Below, piece after piece: positions 2,281-62,323 of a stretch of DNA of 64,000 nucleotides. Position numbers and translations under genes: made by a program. This DNA comes from Streptomyces sp. LBL. Its GTDB lineage: Bacteria > Actinomycetota > Actinomycetes > Streptomycetales > Streptomycetaceae. The notes beneath the pieces were generated by a model, which saw only the letters and a list, made by a program, of their open reading frames with translations, did no database searches and had not been told where the DNA came from. The DNA is taken from the NCBI RefSeq assembly GCF_029893585.1, contig NZ_JARXYX010000001.1:62001-126000 (forward strand). Direction: 5' to 3'. Position 1 is the stretch's first letter. Each line of letters starts with the position of its first letter.

Positions 2281-3066
2281 TCACACCCCCGTCGTCATGT
2301 CGTCGCCCAGGTGCGCCAGCCGTTCGGCCACCGCGTCCGGCGTCGGGCCGTCCATCCGCCCCGCCAGCCGGCCGTCGGCGAGGAACAGCACGGCGTCGGC
2401 GAAGGAGGCGGCGAACGGGTCGTGCGTCACCATCACCACGGTCCGTCCGTGTACCTTCACCGCGTCCTGGAGCAACCGCAGCACACCGCGAGCGCTGCGC
2501 GTGTCCAGCGCACCGGTCGGCTCGTCCGCGAAGATCACCCGGGGCTCGGTGACCAGCGCCCGGGCGATCGCCACCCGCTGCCGTTGGCCGCCGGAGAGCT
2601 GGTCGGGCCGGTGGCCCAGCCGGTCTCCGAGCCCGACGGACGTCAGGACCTCCCGGGTCCGCCCGCGGTCCACGCGCTGCCCGGCGAGCTTGAGCGGCAG
2701 CACCGTGTTCTGCGCGACGGTCAGCGTGTCCAGCAGGTTGTACTGCTGGAACACGAACCCGATCCGCCCGCGTCGGAACCTCGTCAGCTCGGCCTCGCTG
2801 CCGCCGGTCAGCTCGGTGCCGTCCACCCGCACGATCCCGCTGTCGGGCCGGTCGAGCCCGGCCGCGCACTGCAGCAGCGTGGACTTGCCGGAGCCCGACG
2901 GCCCCATCACCGCGGTGAACGTGCCACGTCCGAGGGTGAGCGTGACACCGTCCAACGCGGTCACGGCACTGTCGTCCGTGCCGTAGATCCTGCTGACCTT
3001 GACCAGCCGCAGCGCCTCGGGGGCGGGGCCCGGGTCGGGCGTACGCCGTGAGCCTGTGCCAAACAT
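2281..3066 (-). CDS. ABC transporter ATP-binding protein (MacB/LolD type)
   Basis: ATPase subunit of the exporter, about 261 aa from the ATG at 3066. In-frame GTG codons at 3075 and 3072 are alternative starts. Walker A GPSGSGKST is at about 55-63, a Q-loop in FVFQQYN, signature LSGGQRQRVAIARAL at about 157-171, and Walker B VIFADEP with the following TGALD. The MTHD H-loop is present. It forms an operon with the downstream FtsX-like permease. The promoter region carries a 13-nt direct repeat at 3161-3191. Confidence 0.9.
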   Translation of the reverse strand: MFGTGSRRTPDPGPAPEALRLVKVSRIYGTDDSAVTALDGVTLTLGRGTFTAVMGPSGSGKSTLLQCAAGLDRPDSGIVRVDGTELTGGSEAELTRFRRGRIGFVFQQYNLLDTLTVAQNTVLPLKLAGQRVDRGRTREVLTSVGLGDRLGHRPDQLSGGQRQRVAIARALVTEPRVIFADEPTGALDTRSARGVLRLLQDAVKVHGRTVVMVTHDPFAASFADAVLFLADGRLAGRMDGPTPDAVAERLAHLGDDMTTGV

Positions 3067-3160
3067 CGTCACCACTCTCCGTCCGGCACGCCGTGTGCCT
3101 CACCGAAGAAGCTACGGAGACGACGGACGGGGCACATGGGGCGCAGAACCCGTATCCGGG

Positions 3161-3191
3161 GGTGTACTCAGCGACACCACTCAGCTACACC
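3161..3191 (-). promoter_or_regulatory. 13-nt direct repeat upstream of ABC exporter operon
   Basis: Read on the minus strand, GTGTAGCTGAGTG is followed directly by GTGTCGCTGAGTA (11 of 13 identical), about 90 nt upstream of the ATPase start. The outermost bases GGTGTA/TACACC are also inverted. Tandem half-sites of this spacing are typical of activator or response-regulator binding. No regulator gene is adjacent, so the role is inferred. Confidence 0.35.
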
Positions 3192-3200
3192 CAGCGCCCG

Positions 3201-3869
3201 TCAGGGGGTGACCTCCGCGCTCGTCGGGGAGCTCACCAGCACCACCTCCAGGGTGCGCGGCCCGTGCACGCCCTCCACCCGGTCCAGCTCGATGTCACTG
3301 GTGGCGGACGGGCCGGAGATCCAGGTCAGCGGGCGGGACGGAACCAGCCGTGGCATGGCCTGCGGCACCGACGACACCACCTGCTCGGGAACCCGTACGA
3401 CACAGATGTGGTGGTCGGGGACGAGCGTGATGCGGCGCCGGCCCTGGTCGGGGCCGCCGTCCAGGACGATCGTGCCGGTCTCGGCGATCGCCACCGCGCA
3501 CGCGGTCACCACGCTGTCGATCCGGTCCAGTTCGTACGGGGTGCTCGTTGCCCGGTCGGGGATCAGGTCGGCCTCCGCCTGCGCCAGCCACTCCGGATCC
3601 AGTCCGGTCGGCACGACCACGGTCTTCGAGCCCCTGGCGGCCAGCATCCCGGCGATCGTCGCCGCCAGGTCAGCGGCGGTGCAGCGGTGCACGATCGCCC
3701 GGTAGTCCGCCAGGTTCTCGGCCAGCAGATCCACCGTCCGCTCGACACCCAGGTCGCCGTGCTCACGCAGATAGTCCCGGGGAACCGCCTGCTCGTACGG
3801 CGTGTCGTCCTCGGGCACGTCCACGAGCGCGCGCCGCACCCGGCCCAGGATCCGTTCCCTGCTGCTCAC
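3201..3869 (-). CDS. lutC: L-lactate utilization protein LutC (LUD domain)
   Basis: Third subunit of the LutABC L-lactate oxidation complex, 222 aa from a GTG start. The sequence begins VSSRERILGRVRRAL, as LutC/YkgG proteins do. The C-terminal part shows the LUD-domain pattern (AETGTIVLDGG, RRITLVPDHHICVV). The GTG overlaps the lutB stop by 4 nt (GTGA), supporting translational coupling. It is last of three genes in the order lutA-lutB-lutC. Longer in-frame extension upstream is the shadow of lutB. Confidence 0.93.
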   Translation of the reverse strand: MSSRERILGRVRRALVDVPEDDTPYEQAVPRDYLREHGDLGVERTVDLLAENLADYRAIVHRCTAADLAATIAGMLAARGSKTVVVPTGLDPEWLAQAEADLIPDRATSTPYELDRIDSVVTACAVAIAETGTIVLDGGPDQGRRRITLVPDHHICVVRVPEQVVSSVPQAMPRLVPSRPLTWISGPSATSDIELDRVEGVHGPRTLEVVLVSSPTSAEVTP

Positions 3870-54790: not shown

Positions 54791-55376
54791 TCCGGGCAGG
54801 TCGAGGACGCCCGGGCCGAGCCGGATCGGCCTGGGCTCCGTCGTCCGCGGCGGAGGCGCGCCTGCCTCGTCAGTGCGGTCCGTGCGGGGCGAACTCCATG
54901 CCGCACGGCCCCGCGTCCTCGCTCTCCGGCGGTGGCACCCGCCTGGTGGGACGTGATCCGCGTAGACCGGCGGGACACACGCTGTAGTGCAACGTTCAAC
55001 GGTTTGGGCTGTTGTGTCACACGGCCGATCGAATGTCATTTCCGCATACGGTGTCGACACCCGGCAATCCCTAATCGTCCGGAACTTGACGATCCGTCAA
55101 AATGCCGTGCAGGGCGGGCGATGCGTAAAACCATGAGGTGGCTTGTTGTAACTAGCTGGCCTGTGTAAAAGTATGTCTTGTCGGCGCATGGACAATGACT
55201 TTCCCCCCGTGCGCACGAGGCAGCTCCCGCCCGTTCCTTCGCGCTCCAAAAGAGCTGCCCCGGAGCGGATGTTCGAGATGCCGAACCTTGCGCGGACGGA
55301 TCCCGTCGCTTTGCCGATAACGCCCCATACCCCTTGGTATGGACTTTGTGTAATACGCCCTCGGAGGAAAGCCGCC
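54791..55376. promoter_or_regulatory. Long intergenic region with two palindromes
   Basis: 586 nt, notably less GC-rich than its surroundings after 54980. TTGACG-ATC-CGTCAA (55086-55100) and CCATACC-CCTT-GGTATGG (55325-55342) are perfect inverted repeats. The second lies 34 nt before the GTG of the sigma-like fusion gene and is followed by TAATAC (55351-55356), a -10-like box, then GGAGGAAA. It is a likely operator for that gene. No gene is visible in the gap. Confidence 0.5.
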
Positions 55377-57377
55377 GTGAATGACGCAGGCCTGTCGAAT
55401 TCCCCGGCTCCCGCGCGTCCGTCCGACGCCACGGACGCACAACTGAGCGCCGAGCTCAAGAAGTGGAGCGGGGCGACACCGGCGCTGCAACCCGTCGGTG
55501 AACTCCTCGACCGGCACTGGGAAGCGGCCTTCGCCTACGCCCGGCTGTGCACCGACGGCCCGCGCCCCGCGGGAATGCTCACCACCGCGGCATTCACCCG
55601 CCTCTTCGGTGAATCCCTGCGCCAGACCGGGCCGAGTTCCGCCTGGCGGCCCCATCTTCTGGTCACCGTGCGCCGGATCGCCGCGGAGTGGGACACCGAC
55701 AGCAGACGCGAACTGCTGCACCCGCGGTTGAGAACCGGGGGCAGTGGCGGGGACCGGGCCGCGGACCGCCTGCTGTCGCCCACGAACCGCCGGCTGCTGT
55801 CCGGGGCGTTCCAGCGGCTGCCCCAGGCGGCCCGCTGTCTGCTGTGGCACACCGAGGTCGAGGCCGAACCGATCGGCGTACCGGCGGCACTGCTGGGCCT
55901 CGACGAGGAGGGCGCCGACGTCGAACTGCGGCGGGCCCGCGAGCGGCTGCGCGAGGAGTGCCTCCAGGTCCACGGCGAACTCGCCCCCGAGCAGGAGTGC
56001 CGGTACTACGAGCGGCTGCTGGACGTGACCTACCGGCGCGGCGGTGTCGACCTCGACGCCGACCTGCGCGGCCACCTGGAGCGGTGCGGGCACTGCCGGC
56101 ACACCGCGGACCAGCTCCAGCAGTTCAACGAGGGCCTCGGCAGCGCCCTCGCCGAAGCGGTGCTCGGCTGGGGCGCGCACGCCTACCAGGAGACCCGCGG
56201 ACGTTCCCACGCCGCTCCGCAAGAGCCGGAGGAGACTCGGACGCTCCCCGCGGCGCTCGCGGGCGAGCCCTTCTTCCCGGCGCCGCGGGCGGTGGATCCC
56301 TCGATCATGGGCGAGAACTTCGCGCCCGCGACGACCGCTCCGACGTCCATCGCCCCGGCCACCACCCCGGCCACCGGCTCCCGCACCGCCTCCCGGCCAG
56401 GCTCCCGCACCGTCTCCCGCAGATCGGCCCACAGGGCTGCCCGCCGTACCGCCCGCCGCAATCTCGCCGTGGCCGTCCTCACCGTCAGCGGACTGATCGT
56501 CCTGCCGCTGGTCCTGTGGTCCTCCCTCGGCGCCGCGGAGGGAGAGGCGCAGAGCGACGACTCCCGGCCCTCCGAGGCGCCCGGCGCAGGCGCGGGCACC
56601 TCGACCTCCGACCCGTCCTGGGCCGGCTCCGGAAACACGGAGCAGGGCACCGTGCGCGGTCGGCTGCACAACGTCGGATCCGGGCTGTGCGTCGGCGTCG
56701 TCGGCAAGAAGGCCGTCGAGGGCGCCGAGACCGAACTCGCCGCCTGTTCCTCTGACCAGGACCAGCAGTGGTCGTACGAGACGAGCGGCCTGCTGCGCAG
56801 CGTGGAGTCCCCCGGTCTCTGCATGGACTCCCGCCTCGGCTACTCCGTGCGCCTCGCTCCCTGCACCGGCACCCGCACCGGCACGGCGGAGGCCGACGCC
56901 AAGAACATGCGCTACGACTTCACCCTCCAGGGCGCCCTCGTACCGCGCTGGGACCAGGATCTGGCGCTCACCCCCGCAGCCACCGACGCGGCGGGCGCCT
57001 TGGTCGTCAAGACCCGCGACGACGGCTCCGCCCAGCGCTGGGTCGTCGACACCTCCAAGTCCGACCTCCAGATGCAGGTGGTCAACTGGGGCGTAGAGGA
57101 CACTCCGTCGACCCCGTCCGAGGCCAAGCCCACGCTCAAGGCGGCGAAGAGCCCGACGCCCACACCCACCCCGAAGCCGTCCGCGACCCCGTCGACCCCC
57201 AAGACCGCACCGACACCGACATCGCCCCCGATACCGACGCCCCCGCCTTTCGCGGCCGGGCCCTGCCCCTCCTGTTCGTCGGGCGGCCCGTACGGCGGGG
57301 GCGGATACGACGGATACGGCGGATACGGCGGATACGGCGGATACGGCGGGGGCTTCGGCAGCGCCGGACGCCCCTGA
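55377..57377 (+). CDS. Transmembrane sigma-like / anti-sigma-like / ricin-lectin fusion protein
   Basis: 666 aa from GTG 55377 (GGAGGAAA). Residues about 45-200 look like degenerate sigma-70 regions 2 and 4 (FTRLFGESLRQTG, LSGAFQRLPQAARCLLW, VELRRARERLREECL). H233-x3-C237-x2-C240 (HLERCGHC) is the zinc motif of ZAS anti-sigma factors. A single transmembrane helix is at about 362-382 (LAVAVLTVSGLIVLPLVLW). Outside are a ricin-type beta-trefoil (about 424-560, with QQW and QRW), a Pro/Thr linker and a YGG-repeat tail. It could sense a surface glycan; function is inferred. Confidence 0.8.
   Translation: MNDAGLSNSPAPARPSDATDAQLSAELKKWSGATPALQPVGELLDRHWEAAFAYARLCTDGPRPAGMLTTAAFTRLFGESLRQTGPSSAWRPHLLVTVRRIAAEWDTDSRRELLHPRLRTGGSGGDRAADRLLSPTNRRLLSGAFQRLPQAARCLLWHTEVEAEPIGVPAALLGLDEEGADVELRRARERLREECLQVHGELAPEQECRYYERLLDVTYRRGGVDLDADLRGHLERCGHCRHTADQLQQFNEGLGSALAEAVLGWGAHAYQETRGRSHAAPQEPEETRTLPAALAGEPFFPAPRAVDPSIMGENFAPATTAPTSIAPATTPATGSRTASRPGSRTVSRRSAHRAARRTARRNLAVAVLTVSGLIVLPLVLWSSLGAAEGEAQSDDSRPSEAPGAGAGTSTSDPSWAGSGNTEQGTVRGRLHNVGSGLCVGVVGKKAVEGAETELAACSSDQDQQWSYETSGLLRSVESPGLCMDSRLGYSVRLAPCTGTRTGTAEADAKNMRYDFTLQGALVPRWDQDLALTPAATDAAGALVVKTRDDGSAQRWVVDTSKSDLQMQVVNWGVEDTPSTPSEAKPTLKAAKSPTPTPTPKPSATPSTPKTAPTPTSPPIPTPPPFAAGPCPSCSSGGPYGGGGYDGYGGYGGYGGYGGGFGSAGRP
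57300..57356 (+). repeat. GGATACGGC tandem repeat in coding region
   Basis: About five copies of the 9-nt unit GGATACGGC, encoding the GYG-rich tail of the fusion protein (residues about 641-660). Unit length keeps the frame if copies are gained or lost. Confidence 0.88.
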
Positions 57378-57402: not shown

Positions 57403-58659
57403 TCAGCCCCCGACCACCTGGAGCGAGGCCCACAGCGCCGCCACGGCGGACCCGAGCGCGGCCGGGACGGTGAGCAGGCCGAGCCGGGTGAACTCACCCA
57501 GTTCGACCTCGTGCTCGTGCCGGTGCGCGATGCGCCGCCACAGCAGTGTGGCCAGTGATCCGGCGTACGTGAGGTTCGGGCCGATGTTCACGCCGAGCAG
57601 CACCGCGAGGACGGCGCCGGGGCCGGCCGAAGCGGTCGGCGGCAGCAGGACCAGTACCGCGGGCAGGTTGTTGATCAGGTTGGCCAGTACGGCGGCCAGC
57701 ACGGCGATGCCGAGCAGCGCGGCGAGACCCGTCCCGCTCGGCAGCACGTGCCGCAACGCGTCGGCGAGGCCGTTGTCGACGACCGCGCGTACGACGATGC
57801 CGAGCGCGAGGACGAACGCCAGGAACGTCGGCGACGCCGCCCGCACCACGGTGAGAGGTGTGGCCTGCCGCCGGACCAGTGCCCGGCCGGCCAGCACGAG
57901 CGCTCCTGCCAGCGCGGCCCAGGCCGGCTCGATGCCGAGGGCGGAGGTCATGACGAACCCCGCCAGGGTGCACGCGACGGTCACCAGCGCGAACACCGGC
58001 AGCCCGGGTGTGTCGGCCGGGTCGGGGGAGGGGGCGGTCCGGGTCAGCTCGCGGTCGAAGAAGCGCCGGAAGACCACGTACTCGGCGCTGATCGCGACCA
58101 GCCACGGCAGCGCCATCAGCGACGCGAACCGGGTGAAGCTCAGACCGCTCGCCGCGAACGCCAGCAGGTTCGTGAGGTTGGAGACGGGCAGCAGCAGCGA
58201 GGCCGTGTTCGACAGATGCGCGCTCGCGTAGATGTGCGGCTTGGCGGCGACACCCATCCGGGAGGCGGTGGCGAACACCACCGGCGTCAACAGCACCACG
58301 GTGGCGTCCAGACTGAGAACGGCCGTGATCGCCGAGGCCAGCACGAACACCGCCGTCAGCAGCCTTCCCGGCGATCCCGCCGCCCGGCGGGCCATCCAGG
58401 CCCCGCACGCCCTGAAGAGTCCCTCCACGTCGCAGAAGTGGGCGAGCACCAGTACCGCGGCGAGGAACCCGACCACCGGCCCCAGCCGCTCGGCCTCCTG
58501 CCGCGCGTGGTCCAGCGAGAGCGCCCCGGTCGCGATCGCCACCCCCGCCGCCGGGACCGCGACCACCGCCTCCGGTCGGCCGAAGGGGCGCAGAACGGCC
58601 CAGGCGAGGACGGCGACGAGCAGGACGACGGACAGAGACTCGGCGAGCGGGGTGTTCAG
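57403..58659 (-). CDS. ArsB/NhaD-superfamily permease, probable CTG start
   Basis: About 418 aa if started at CTG 58659 (LNTPLAESLSVVLLVAVLAWAVLRPFG), which has AAGGA 8 nt upstream and restores the first transmembrane helix; an in-frame stop lies 24 nt further up and the first ATG/GTG in frame is at 58566 (387 aa). Ion-transporter fold with 10-12 segments and the paired motifs SNLTNLLAF and NLINNLPAVLVLLP, GVNIGPNLTYAGSLATLLW. Family members export arsenite or exchange Na+/H+; the ion is unknown. Confidence 0.82.
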   Translation of the reverse strand: MNTPLAESLSVVLLVAVLAWAVLRPFGRPEAVVAVPAAGVAIATGALSLDHARQEAERLGPVVGFLAAVLVLAHFCDVEGLFRACGAWMARRAAGSPGRLLTAVFVLASAITAVLSLDATVVLLTPVVFATASRMGVAAKPHIYASAHLSNTASLLLPVSNLTNLLAFAASGLSFTRFASLMALPWLVAISAEYVVFRRFFDRELTRTAPSPDPADTPGLPVFALVTVACTLAGFVMTSALGIEPAWAALAGALVLAGRALVRRQATPLTVVRAASPTFLAFVLALGIVVRAVVDNGLADALRHVLPSGTGLAALLGIAVLAAVLANLINNLPAVLVLLPPTASAGPGAVLAVLLGVNIGPNLTYAGSLATLLWRRIAHRHEHEVELGEFTRLGLLTVPAALGSAVAALWASLQVVGG

Positions 58660-59944: not shown

Positions 59945-62323
59945 TCACTCCTCGTCGACGAGTGAGATCTCCGACCAGATCGTCTTGCCCTCGGCCGTGT
60001 GCCGGCTGCCCCAGCGCTGGGTGAGCTGGGCGACCAGCAGCAGACCGCGGCCTCCCTCGTCCCAGGTCTTGGCCCGGCGCAGATGCGGGGCCGTGTGGCT
60101 GGTGTCGGACACCTCGCAGATCAGCGTGGCCGCGTCGTGGATCAGCCGCAGCCGGATGGGGTGCGAGCCGTACCGGATGGCGTTGGTGACCAGCTCGCTC
60201 ACCACCAGCTCGGCGGTGAACGCGGCCTCGCTCAGCTCCCATCGGCCGAGCTGGGCGACGACCTGCCTGCGGATCGGCGAGACGAGCGCCGGGTCCACCG
60301 GGATGTCCCAGGTGGCGACCTGCGAGGCCGGCAGTCCCCGGGTGCGCGCCAGCAGCAGGGCCGCGTCGTCGAGCGCGCCGCCCGGCGGGAGCAACTGTTG
60401 CAGGACGCGGTCGCAGGTCTCCTCCAGCGACTCGGGAGACACGGCCAGGGCCTCGCACAGCAGGGCGTGGCTGTCCACGTCCCGCTCCCGGGTCTCGACG
60501 AGCCCGTCGGTGTACAGGGACAACAGGGTGCCCTCGGGCAGCTCGAGCTCGACGCACTCGAACGGCTGCCCGCCCAGCCCCAGCGCCGGCCCCGGCGGCA
60601 GGTCGACCTCCTGGGGCACCCCGCCCGGCAGGAGCATCACGGGCGCGGGATGTCCGGCCCGGGCCAGCGAGCAGCATCGCGACACCGGGTCGTACACCGC
60701 GTACAGACAGGTGGCGCCGACCTCGCCGGTGCCGCCCTCGCTCCCGGCCTCCGCGGACAGCCGTACGACGAGGTCGTCCAGGTGGGTCAGCAGCTCGTCG
60801 GGGGCCAGGTCGATGTCGGCGAGGGTGCGCACCGCGGTCCGCAGCCGGCCCATGGTCGCCGACGCCTGGATGCCGTGGCCGACGACGTCCCCGACGACCA
60901 TCGCGACCCGCATCCCGGACAGCGGGATCACGTCGAACCAGTCGCCGCCCACCCCCGCCCGGGCCGCCGGGAGGTAGCGGGAGGCCGCCTCCACGGCGGC
61001 GGTGCGCGGCAACGAGCGGGGGAGGAGACTGCGCTGGAGCGCGAGGGCGGTCTCCCGCTCGCGGGAGTAGCGGCGGGCGTTGTCGATGCAGATGGCCGCC
61101 CGGGCGGTGATCTCCTCGGCGAGCAGCACGTCGTCCGGCGTGAACCCGTCCGACCGCCGGAACCGGGTGAGGACGGCGACGCCGAGGGTCAGACCACGGG
61201 CCTGGATCGGCACCGACATCGTGGAGTGGATACCGTACTGCCGGATCCGTTCGAGCCGTACCTTGTCCCAGGAGAGCCACTCGGCGAGGCCGCCGTTCTC
61301 CGTCGACGCGATGATGGTGTGGCCCACCGCCAGGGAGTCGCCCTGTGGCGAGTGGGCCGGGTAGACGTCCACCTGGCCCGGCTTGGCCACGGCCTCCGGG
61401 TCGCCCGGGTTGATCGAGCGGTGGGCGGCCCGGCGCAGGCTGACCGGCGCGGTCAGCCGCTCGGTGAAAGCCTCCCCACCGGCCTCGGGAGGGTCCAGCA
61501 GGTCGACGCTGACGAAGTCGCCGAGAGCCGGCACACAGACGTCCGCGAGTTCCTGGGCGGTCCGGGTGACGTCGAGGGTGGTGCCGACGCGGACGCTGGC
61601 CTCGTTGACCAGTTGCAGCCGCTCCTGGGCGAGGTACAGGTCGGTGAAGTCGTGGACGGCCACGCACACCCCCCGCACCCGGCCCTTGTCGTCGGTGATC
61701 GGGGCGATCCGGGCCAGACAGGCGTGCGCCGGGCCGTCACCGCCCACCGGCAGATAGGACCGCACGTCGTGGCCGCGCCCGGTGGCCAGCACGCGGTGCA
61801 GATGCCTCTCGAGATCGTCGCCATACGGTCTGCCGCTCATCTCCGGCACCCGCAGCCCCCGCACCCGCTCCTCGGGCAGCCCCAGCACCTCCGTCATGGC
61901 CGAGTTCATACGGTGCAGCCGCAGCCGCTCGTCGTAGATCGCCACGGCGCAGGGAGACTGGAGGAGCTGGGCCCGCTCCAGAGGGTCGTCGTACGGGAGC
62001 GGTCCGTCGCCCGCCACCGGGGTGACCACGAGCCAGCCGCCCGAGCTTCCGTCCCCGTCCTGTCTGCGGTGGACGAGCAGCCACACCGGCAGCATCGTAC
62101 CGTCGCGGTGACGCAGTGTGAGCATGCCGTCCCAGCGGACCTCCCGCGGACGGAACGGCGCCGAGCCGTCGGCCAGCAACTCGGCGGCGGGGCGGCCCAC
62201 CATCTCGGCGGCTGTGTGGCCCAGCAGTCGGTGGGCGCCCTCGTTCCACTCGACGAGCCGGCCCGTGGCGTCGATGACCGCCCGCGCGGTGGCGGACTCG
62301 TCGAACGGATACACGGTACTCAT
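59945..62323 (-). CDS. PAS-PAS-GAF-SpoIIE phosphatase with HATPase domain
   Basis: 792 aa from ATG 62323 (GGAG upstream). Two PAS domains (about 10-110 and 125-245), a GAF domain (about 260-410), a PP2C/SpoIIE phosphatase (about 425-640: GGDWFDVIPL, VVGDVVGHG, LYTDGLVE, DDAALLLAR) and a C-terminal RsbW-like kinase domain (VVSELVTNAIRYG N-box; DEGGRGLLLV). Such proteins sense a ligand or redox state and switch anti-sigma/anti-anti-sigma partners. No transmembrane segments, so cytoplasmic. No partner gene adjoins. Confidence 0.93.
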   Translation of the reverse strand: MSTVYPFDESATARAVIDATGRLVEWNEGAHRLLGHTAAEMVGRPAAELLADGSAPFRPREVRWDGMLTLRHRDGTMLPVWLLVHRRQDGDGSSGGWLVVTPVAGDGPLPYDDPLERAQLLQSPCAVAIYDERLRLHRMNSAMTEVLGLPEERVRGLRVPEMSGRPYGDDLERHLHRVLATGRGHDVRSYLPVGGDGPAHACLARIAPITDDKGRVRGVCVAVHDFTDLYLAQERLQLVNEASVRVGTTLDVTRTAQELADVCVPALGDFVSVDLLDPPEAGGEAFTERLTAPVSLRRAAHRSINPGDPEAVAKPGQVDVYPAHSPQGDSLAVGHTIIASTENGGLAEWLSWDKVRLERIRQYGIHSTMSVPIQARGLTLGVAVLTRFRRSDGFTPDDVLLAEEITARAAICIDNARRYSRERETALALQRSLLPRSLPRTAAVEAASRYLPAARAGVGGDWFDVIPLSGMRVAMVVGDVVGHGIQASATMGRLRTAVRTLADIDLAPDELLTHLDDLVVRLSAEAGSEGGTGEVGATCLYAVYDPVSRCCSLARAGHPAPVMLLPGGVPQEVDLPPGPALGLGGQPFECVELELPEGTLLSLYTDGLVETRERDVDSHALLCEALAVSPESLEETCDRVLQQLLPPGGALDDAALLLARTRGLPASQVATWDIPVDPALVSPIRRQVVAQLGRWELSEAAFTAELVVSELVTNAIRYGSHPIRLRLIHDAATLICEVSDTSHTAPHLRRAKTWDEGGRGLLLVAQLTQRWGSRHTAEGKTIWSEISLVDEE

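What the first reader, a model, noticed from the sequence alone, without database searches (positions are those of the whole stretch)
55325..57377. Sigma-like, anti-sigma-like and lectin modules joined in one membrane protein
A cytoplasmic region resembling sigma regions 2 and 4, followed by an HxxxCxxC zinc motif, one membrane helix, an extracellular ricin trefoil and a YGG tail, reads as a self-contained glycan-sensing regulator. Sigma factor and anti-sigma factor are normally separate proteins. A perfect inverted repeat (CCATACC/GGTATGG) sits at its promoter, possibly for autocontrol. This is my best candidate for an undescribed signalling system in the window.
Basis: partly seen in the sequence, partly recalled or inferred. 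Interest (0 to 1): 0.72.

Follow-up and report, generated by a model that had tools for sequence, protein, structure and literature searches.

The report
Lectin receptor with altered sigma-factor domain
A membrane protein of Streptomyces joins a sugar-binding domain outside the cell to a transcription-starting (sigma) domain and its own brake inside; this layout is already known in a sister family, but here the contact that sigma factors use to hold RNA polymerase has been replaced and the replacement is strictly preserved.

Summary
Window 55377-57377 (+) encodes a 666-aa protein: sigma2- and sigma4-like domains, a C/H/C/C zinc anti-sigma (ZAS) signature, one membrane helix, a ricin-type lectin, a Gly/Tyr-rich tail. 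Single-sequence sigma scores are sub-threshold, but profile comparison (95.7%, E 8.5e-9) and structure prediction support sigma domains. It forms a separate Streptomyces clade; sensor domains vary among relatives (ricin, CBM2, NPCBM, F5/8C). The new feature is that the core-polymerase box of sigma2.2 (DxxDxxQE) is gone: none of 76 homologues has an acidic residue at 64-73, and 69 of 76 read AGMLTTAAF at 65-73, while sigma2 stays under strong purifying selection (dN/dS 0.05-0.29). The upstream palindrome is real and conserved (at least 10 of 12 positions in 69 of 79 upstream regions) but looks like the operator of a dimeric regulator, not sigma autocontrol. Verdict: new variant of a known kind; whether the sigma part still recruits RNA polymerase is the open question.

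The parts
55325..55342 (.). Palindrome CCATACC-CCTT-GGTATGG, probable operator; conserved footprint across orthologues CATACC-N4-GGTATGGAC(T)
   Evidence: At least 10 of 12 core positions in 69 of 79 upstream regions, 57 perfect; CATACC begins 50-53 bases before the start codon in 66 of those 69; same score in the 220 bases further upstream: 0 of 79
55363..55368 (+). Probable ribosome-binding site GGAGGA
   Evidence: Sequence; GGA-rich sequence at this place in orthologues
55377..57377 (+). Coding sequence, 666 aa, GTG start
   Evidence: conserved start in orthologues
55494..55706 (+). Sigma2-like domain, residues 40-110
   Evidence: hhalign to ECF sigma factors; AlphaFold2 helices 35-58, 62-80, 90-105; Foldseek and VIA matches; dN/dS 0.045-0.289 against 9 orthologues
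55566..55589 (+). Replaced core-polymerase box (DxxDxxQE position), residues 64-71, PAGMLTTA
   Evidence: No D/E at 65-73 in 76 of 76, nor at 64; A65, G66, L68, T69, T70, F73 in 76 of 76; ADDLTAEVF in 6 of 6 SCO4117-type proteins examined
55776..55982 (+). Sigma4-like domain, residues 134-202
   Evidence: Foldseek match to the SigL sigma4 domain 3hug, prob 1.00, TMt 0.72-0.78, rmsd 1.2-1.8; Sigma70_r4_2 in 29 of 76 members at E up to 1, best 8.3e-8
55983..56216 (+). Zinc anti-sigma (ZAS)-like domain, residues 203-280; ligand pattern C208, H233, C237, C240
   Evidence: All four in 76 of 76; hhalign of the segment to own-genome zf-HC2 proteins 57.6%, E 1e-4 over 30 columns, 20 shuffled controls at most 1.8%; zf-HC2 above cut-off at the aligned place in relatives L203 and L206
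56463..56519 (+). Membrane helix, residues 363-381
   Evidence: Kyte-Doolittle mean 2.5; net charge +9 before, -4 after
56658..57041 (+). Ricin-type beta-trefoil lectin, residues 428-555
   Evidence: Pfam PF00652 E 3.8e-15; PDB xylanase chains E 2e-6 for residues 417-476
57300..57374 (+). Gly/Tyr-rich C-terminal tail after a Pro/Thr-rich linker
   Evidence: At least 50% G+Y in the last 30 residues of 57 of 68 complete orthologues

Best explanation
A single-polypeptide transmembrane regulator, of the same stock as ECF52 sigma factors. The lectin outside binds a glycan (ligand unknown). The signal crosses one membrane helix and loosens or cuts the juxtamembrane/ZAS part, freeing the sigma2-sigma4 module to act on transcription. 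Because the usual acidic contact to the beta-prime clamp has been replaced, that action is probably conditional: it may need a partner, a modification of the invariant Thr69/Thr70, or a different binding mode. A DNA-binding dimer (perhaps TetR-type) sets the amount of protein through the conserved upstream palindrome. Shown: anatomy, kinship, conservation, loss of the box, conserved palindrome. Inferred: glycan ligand, proteolysis or release, transcriptional output, identity of the palindrome's regulator.
For: Sigma fold: with controls; AlphaFold2 best model pLDDT 80, pTM 0.74; Foldseek rows 1-12 are all sigma-factor or transcription-initiation chains, several from anti-sigma complexes. ZAS ligands in 76 of 76. 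Membrane helix and N-in charge pattern (positive-inside rule recalled). Lectin. Homology to six SCO4117-type proteins at E about 1e-36 to 6e-39; the two scanned carry Sigma70_r2 and NPCBM above cut-off and zf-HC2 just below it. Fused proteins split from 14 stand-alone ECFs with support 100/99. A relative with ricin and above-cut-off sigma domains exists (L210 5855-7597; its zf-HC2 is below cut-off). Purifying selection on sigma2. Palindrome. Release by proteolysis is the published proposal for ECF52 (PMC5826349 Discussion; PMC8999054 passage).
Against: The sigma2.2 core-binding box is absent, so ordinary holoenzyme formation is doubtful. No Foldseek match reaches E 0.001 (best 0.012), whole-domain superpositions have rmsd of 10 A and more because the two domains sit differently, and VIA Z is below 8; only two of the five AlphaFold2 models exceed pLDDT 70. 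ZAS: only 1 of 76 members hits zf-HC2, at E 0.023; whole A1 against the zf-HC2 set gives only 25.4%; the match does not reach C208; the segment folded alone gave no anti-sigma match; ZAS dN/dS is not low (0.24-1.08). No sugar-utilisation gene among the five neighbours scanned. The lectin's first repeat lacks a Cys-x-Asp (GLCVGV); the second has it (that this Asp matters is recalled).
Confidence: 0.5

Rival explanations
1. Pseudo-sigma: the domain no longer binds RNA polymerase and works as a sigma mimic or membrane-tethered decoy, for example by binding another protein's anti-sigma domain (working like PhyR but without a receiver domain) or by binding DNA through sigma4 alone.
For: All four DxxDxxQE positions are changed: P/A/S/H/G/F at 64, M/I at 67, T at 70, A (75) or Q (1) at 71, over 76 homologues, while sigma2 stays under strong purifying selection. 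PhyR sigma-like domains are among the fold matches.
Against: Sigma4 is kept. The protein still carries its own ZAS signature. An acidic residue remains at 60-63, just before the box, in 64 of 76. No receiver domain was seen. Other polymerase contacts were not tested.
Confidence: 0.3
2. Phospho-gated sigma: as in ECF43 factors (EcfP, EcfK), a Ser/Thr kinase restores negative charge in sigma2.2, here on Thr69 or Thr70.
For: T69 and T70 are in 76 of 76 homologues. ECF43 factors lack DAED and are activated by Thr phosphorylation (passages of PMC8999054; PMC8103513; PMC13147305). SCO4117 itself is phosphorylated at Ser15 and Thr231 (PMC5826349 Discussion).
Against: The residue at the ECF43 phospho position is Gly66. 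T69 is also present in SCO4117-type proteins that keep acidic residues in the box. No kinase catalytic-loop motif in the window; one in only 10 of 79 loci. In EcfK the Thr-to-Ala variant of that site still works (PMC13147305 passage).
Confidence: 0.12
3. Surface lectin or adhesin in which the cytoplasmic part is only a relic anchor.
For: The lectin and, in most orthologues, the Gly/Tyr tail are conserved; no regulon is visible among the neighbours scanned.
Against: Sigma2 is more constrained than the lectin in 9 of 9 comparisons; zinc ligands are invariant.
Confidence: 0.05

Closest known systems
ECF52 sigma factors (SCO4117 of Streptomyces coelicolor)
   Same: Order sigma2-sigma4-ZAS-membrane helix-Pro-rich stretch-carbohydrate-binding domain in one protein; homologous to SCO4117-type proteins through sigma and ZAS. 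SCO4117 itself was not at hand; the six proteins are assigned by NPCBM (two scanned), layout and, in L195, an upstream TetR gene
   Different: Lectin is ricin-type, not NPCBM; acidic box of sigma2.2 lost; own clade; sigma scores far below family cut-offs. In the published case the Pro-rich stretch lies before the carbohydrate module; here it follows the lectin
ECF53 and ECF48 fused sigma factors
   Same: Fused ZAS and membrane helix; ECF52/53 reported with predicted glycan-related domains (passages of PMC8999054 and PMC10766802)
   Different: Reference sequences not compared here
ECF43 phospho-activated sigma factors (EcfP, EcfK)
   Same: Acidic DAED box replaced by uncharged residues, Thr nearby
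   Different: ECF43 has its phospho-Thr inside the box; here Gly66, with Thr one helical turn later; no kinase motif in the window; fused to ZAS and lectin
PhyR sigma-like domain
   Same: A sigma fold used for something other than polymerase recruitment (possible analogy; PMC8999054 passage)
   Different: No receiver domain; membrane-bound; own ZAS signature

Membership tests
ECF52 | Sigma2 and sigma4 domains | tested here: met
   hhalign 95.7%, E 8.5e-9 with shuffled controls; fold matches, middling scores
ECF52 | Sigma domain recognised by TIGR02937 / Sigma70_r2 above cut-off | tested here: not met
   TIGR02937 12.6 bits and 16 bits against cut-off 42.9; no Sigma70_r2
ECF52 | Fused zinc anti-sigma signature and membrane helix | tested here: met
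   ZAS fold itself inconclusive, see below
ECF52 | C-terminal carbohydrate-binding domain of NPCBM type, as in SCO4117 | tested here: not met
   Ricin type instead
ECF52 | Falls inside the published ECF52 group model | not tested
   Group models and SCO4117 itself not held; the classification paper I looked up is not held. In the tree here it is in a clade beside SCO4117-type proteins (fork 96/78, not starred)
Ordinary sigma-70 family factor | Acidic DxxDxxQE core-binding box in sigma2.2 | tested here: not met
   No D/E at 64, 67, 70 or 71 in 76 of 76
Class I zinc anti-sigma domain (ZAS) | HxxxCxxC plus an upstream Cys about 25 residues before | tested here: met
   C208, H233, C237, C240 in 76 of 76; the RsrA-like L127 shows the same pattern with one residue more
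Class I zinc anti-sigma domain (ZAS) | Anti-sigma helical fold | tested here: inconclusive
   Isolated model pLDDT 74, no anti-sigma match; profile match modest
ECF43 (phospho-activated) | Thr at the third position of the DAED box and a linked Ser/Thr kinase | tested here: not met
   Gly66 in 76 of 76; no kinase motif in the window, 10 of 79 loci
Ricin-type beta-trefoil lectin | PF00652 above cut-off | tested here: met
   56.6 bits against 29
Ricin-type beta-trefoil lectin | Binds sugar | not testable with these tools
   No assay

The most novel reading that the evidence does not exclude
Within the sigma-anti-sigma-lectin receptors of Streptomyces, one lineage has turned its sigma domain into a pseudo- or conditional sigma. 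On the tree made here the acidic polymerase-clamp contact was lost before the ricin and CBM2 branches split, and the new helix was then fixed by selection, so that a glycan receptor now signals through a sigma fold that cannot join RNA polymerase in the usual way.
Probability: 0.4. Interest if true: 0.72.

Novelty: new variant of a known kind. Interest (0 to 1): 0.45.

Why it matters
It gives a set of homologous membrane receptors with exchangeable carbohydrate-binding domains (ricin, CBM2, NPCBM, F5/8C) on one sigma-ZAS scaffold, and a natural comparison between members with and without the acidic polymerase box. That makes it testable whether a sigma fold can be kept by selection for something other than ordinary polymerase recruitment. 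If the sigma part is active, it would be a one-protein glycan sensor.

Tried and rejected
Palindrome as sigma autocontrol: rejected as the leading reading, because it is symmetric with a 4-base spacer. In 121 genomes of the genus the exact 19-base pattern occurs in 20 (reversed-pattern control: 0 of 121). In 16 of the 19 other genomes a family gene lies in the same 2.3-3 kb locus on the same strand; the window's own is the 17th. The three exceptions are G424, G057 and G495. In L211 (G424) and L226 (G495) the site lies just before the likely start of a molybdopterin-oxidoreductase-like gene (named by eye) with a TetR gene upstream (Pfam run on the L211 TetR only). In the window's genome only the window site has fewer than two mismatches; 15 further rows have two (one is the same site read on the other strand), against 3 for the reversed control. 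Ten of 79 upstream regions do not reach 10 of 12 positions.

Operon or polysaccharide locus: not seen among the five neighbours scanned: P450 and ferredoxin upstream; on the other strand downstream an ArsB/CitMHS transporter, a DUF4232 protein and a PAS-GAF-SpoIIE-HATPase protein. Targets elsewhere were not sought.

PDB sequence search with profile A1 found nothing useful. The ZAS segment folded alone gave no anti-sigma match. The NPCBM search of the own genome found three proteins, none SCO4117-like by eye. C5, C7, C17, C19, C31 and C52 frames were looked at as possible ECF52 genes; only C17 looks like sigma-like/zinc motif/membrane helix, with a BACON domain, its sigma and zinc scores below cut-off.

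Kinase linkage: 10 of 79 loci hold the catalytic-loop pattern, eight of them with one identical string, so not independent; taken as no evidence.

Rows dropped: A1 leaves out L045, L055, L066, L078 (75 of 79 loci plus the window); A3 leaves out L055, L066, L083 (76 of 79 plus the window). For tail and membrane-helix counts 11 of 79 loci (cut by a contig end, or frame-broken) were left out; the ricin alignment holds 66 of 69 proteins. A2 uses 14 of 30 sigma loci held; A4 uses nine of 14 zf-HC2 hits. The tree has 49 rows, two truncated relatives left out, and 13 named orthologues only. dN/dS was run on 9 close orthologues.
Full report
What is there. The gene runs from GTG 55377 to the stop at 57377 on the + strand, in a genome of 9.3 Mb held as 95 contigs; its relatives in the named collection are Streptomyces (79 loci shown of 96 confirmed). 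Residues 428-555 are a ricin-type lectin (PF00652, E 3.8e-15). Residues 363-381 form one membrane helix with strongly positive N-terminal and acidic C-terminal flanks, so the N-terminal half should be cytoplasmic (positive-inside rule, recalled). Residues 233-240 are HLERCGHC.

Is the N-terminal half really sigma-like? The single sequence scores below every cut-off. An alignment of 76 homologues (A1) compared with 14 sigma factors of the same genome (A2) aligns residues 40-194 with 3-160 at 95.7%, E 8.5e-9; twenty column-shuffled versions of A2 give at most 1.4%. Sigma70_r4_2 is found in 29 of 76 members at E up to 1 (best 8.3e-8). AlphaFold2 gives a best model with mean pLDDT 80 and pTM 0.74; the five models range from 62.8 to 80.1. 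Foldseek's rows 1-12 are sigma-factor chains or transcription-initiation complexes (SigH, RpoE, SigW, SigL, AlgU; best E 0.012, none at 0.001), and isolated sigma4 structures match with TMt 0.68-0.78 at rmsd 1.2-2.2. Two-domain superpositions have large rmsd. VIA-align Z is 7.7 at most. These are middling structural scores; their consistency and the profile result carry the claim.

Anti-sigma part. C208, H233, C237 and C240 are identical in 76 of 76 sequences. The RsrA-like protein of the same genome shows the same C...H-x3-C-x2-C pattern with one residue more between C and H (L127; calling it RsrA-like rests on its sequence and recall). The profile comparison of this segment with nine own-genome zf-HC2 proteins is modest: 57.6%, E 1e-4, over 30 columns that do not include C208 (shuffled controls at most 1.8%); with the whole A1 it is 25.4%, and only 1 of 76 members hits zf-HC2, at E 0.023. 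Relatives at the same aligned place are above the zf-HC2 cut-off (L203 1.6e-8, L206 6.8e-8). Folded alone, the segment matched no anti-sigma structure, so the fold is not shown. ZAS dN/dS is 0.24-1.08.

Kinship. The genome holds three paralogues: C3:339193 and C1:135201 with ricin-like domains and C12:36020 with a CBM2 (Pfam on the C1 copy and the C12 copy; the C3 copy by its tblastn match to the window lectin). A class-wide profile search found matches in 123 of 394 genomes and 27 of 137 genera (at most six candidates per genome were scored, so counts per genome are lower bounds). Close orthologues (E below 1e-110) are in 14 of the 40 same-genus genomes listed there, the window's own included, and in no other genus listed. 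Many of these genomes also carry a copy matching residues 42-275 at about 1e-30 to 1e-38. I examined six (L195-L200): each has a zinc motif, a membrane helix and a C-terminal domain. The two scanned carry Sigma70_r2 and NPCBM above cut-off and zf-HC2 below it, and in L195 the gene upstream is TetR-type. This fits the published description of SCO4117, the ECF52 prototype beside atrA (PMC5826349: abstract, first of two parts of Results, Discussion). I could not compare SCO4117 itself. In a tree of 49 sequences all fused proteins split from the stand-alone ECFs (100/99). The window clade (99/94) groups with the other ricin paralogues (97/92), then the CBM2 paralogue (100/100), then a divergent pair L210 with ricin or F5/8C domains (98/96), and beside these the SCO4117-type clade (96/78). 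The program flagged long branches, the CBM2 row and the stand-alone ECFs among them, so these joins are not certain.

The unexpected feature. Sigma factors hold the polymerase clamp through acidic residues in sigma2.2, DAED or DxxDxxQE (passages of PMC8103513, PMC8999054, PMC13147305). In the alignment made here SCO4117-type proteins read ADDLTAEVF (6 of 6), the L210 pair AEELTAEAF and AEDLAAESF, and 14 of 14 stand-alone ECFs keep at least one acidic residue at the two DAED positions 66-67. The window clade reads AGMLTTAAF (69 of 76) with no acidic residue at 64-73 in any of 76. An acidic residue does remain at 60-63 in 64 of 76. The five ricin B/C rows have no acidic residue in the box; the single CBM2 row has one Glu. 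A65, G66, L68, T69, T70 and F73 are invariant. This is not decay: against nine orthologues the dN/dS of sigma2 is 0.045-0.289, lower than that of sigma4, ZAS, the juxtamembrane linker and the lectin in nine of nine comparisons; the 26-codon membrane segment is lower still in four of nine (L010, L067, L013, L015). So the altered helix is being kept.

The palindrome. CATACC-N4-GGTATG is matched at 10 or more of 12 positions in 69 of 79 upstream regions (57 perfect) and begins 50-53 bases before the start codon in 66 of those 69; the footprint extends to GGTATGGAC(T). The 220 bases further upstream never reach that score (0 of 79). One orthologue has ten-base arms (L044). The exact extended pattern is in 20 of 121 genomes; 17, the window's own included, have it with a family gene. 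Its symmetry suggests a dimeric regulator; a TetR-type one is a guess from two other loci.

How it probably works. A glycan outside is bound by the lectin; the ZAS inside restrains the sigma module; release follows by proteolysis or conformational change, as proposed for ECF52 (PMC5826349 Discussion; PMC8999054 passage). The step after release is unclear because of the missing box. I prefer a conditional sigma, with a pseudo-sigma as a serious rival and an ECF43-like phospho-switch as a lesser one; the ECF43 phospho position is Gly here.

Novelty. The fusion principle is published. Searches of the held library for ricin or lectin with sigma/ECF terms (listings of 3 and of 10 out of 39 papers) and for the DAED-loss literature (7 papers listed) showed no title or abstract start about a ricin-type member or about loss of the box in fused factors. 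The classification paper I looked up is not held, so this is a limited statement.

Noticed in passing
Outside the window: G000:C1:135213-135992 (L003, L123): A second ricin-type paralogue about 18 kb downstream (start to start); by the positions listed, 12 of 14 genomes with a close orthologue have another family member 10-20 kb away (its sensor domain not checked in each).
   Followed up: partly
59945-62323 (-): PAS-GAF-SpoIIE-HATPase protein, found near the orthologue in 55 of 79 loci; a phosphatase/anti-sigma-type regulator that might be functionally linked.
   Followed up: no
57403-58566 (-): ArsB/CitMHS-type transporter, tail to tail with this gene, found in 61 of 79 loci.
   Followed up: no
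L210 765-3236 (-) and 5855-7597 (+), genome G317: Divergent pair of sigma/zinc-motif/membrane proteins with F5/8C and ricin sensor domains and Sigma70_r2 above cut-off: they keep acidic residues in the sigma2.2 box.
   Followed up: partly
L141 3691-5490 (own genome C17): Another sigma-like/zinc-motif/membrane protein with a BACON domain, beside a radA-like gene (named by eye); sigma and zinc scores below cut-off.
   Followed up: no
L142 about 2429-3205 (own genome C5): Short sigma-like protein with what looks like a membrane helix and no lectin.
   Followed up: no
Own genome: No NPCBM-type SCO4117 relative was found, although many Streptomyces sampled have a similar copy; absence or assembly gap not resolved.
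   Followed up: partly
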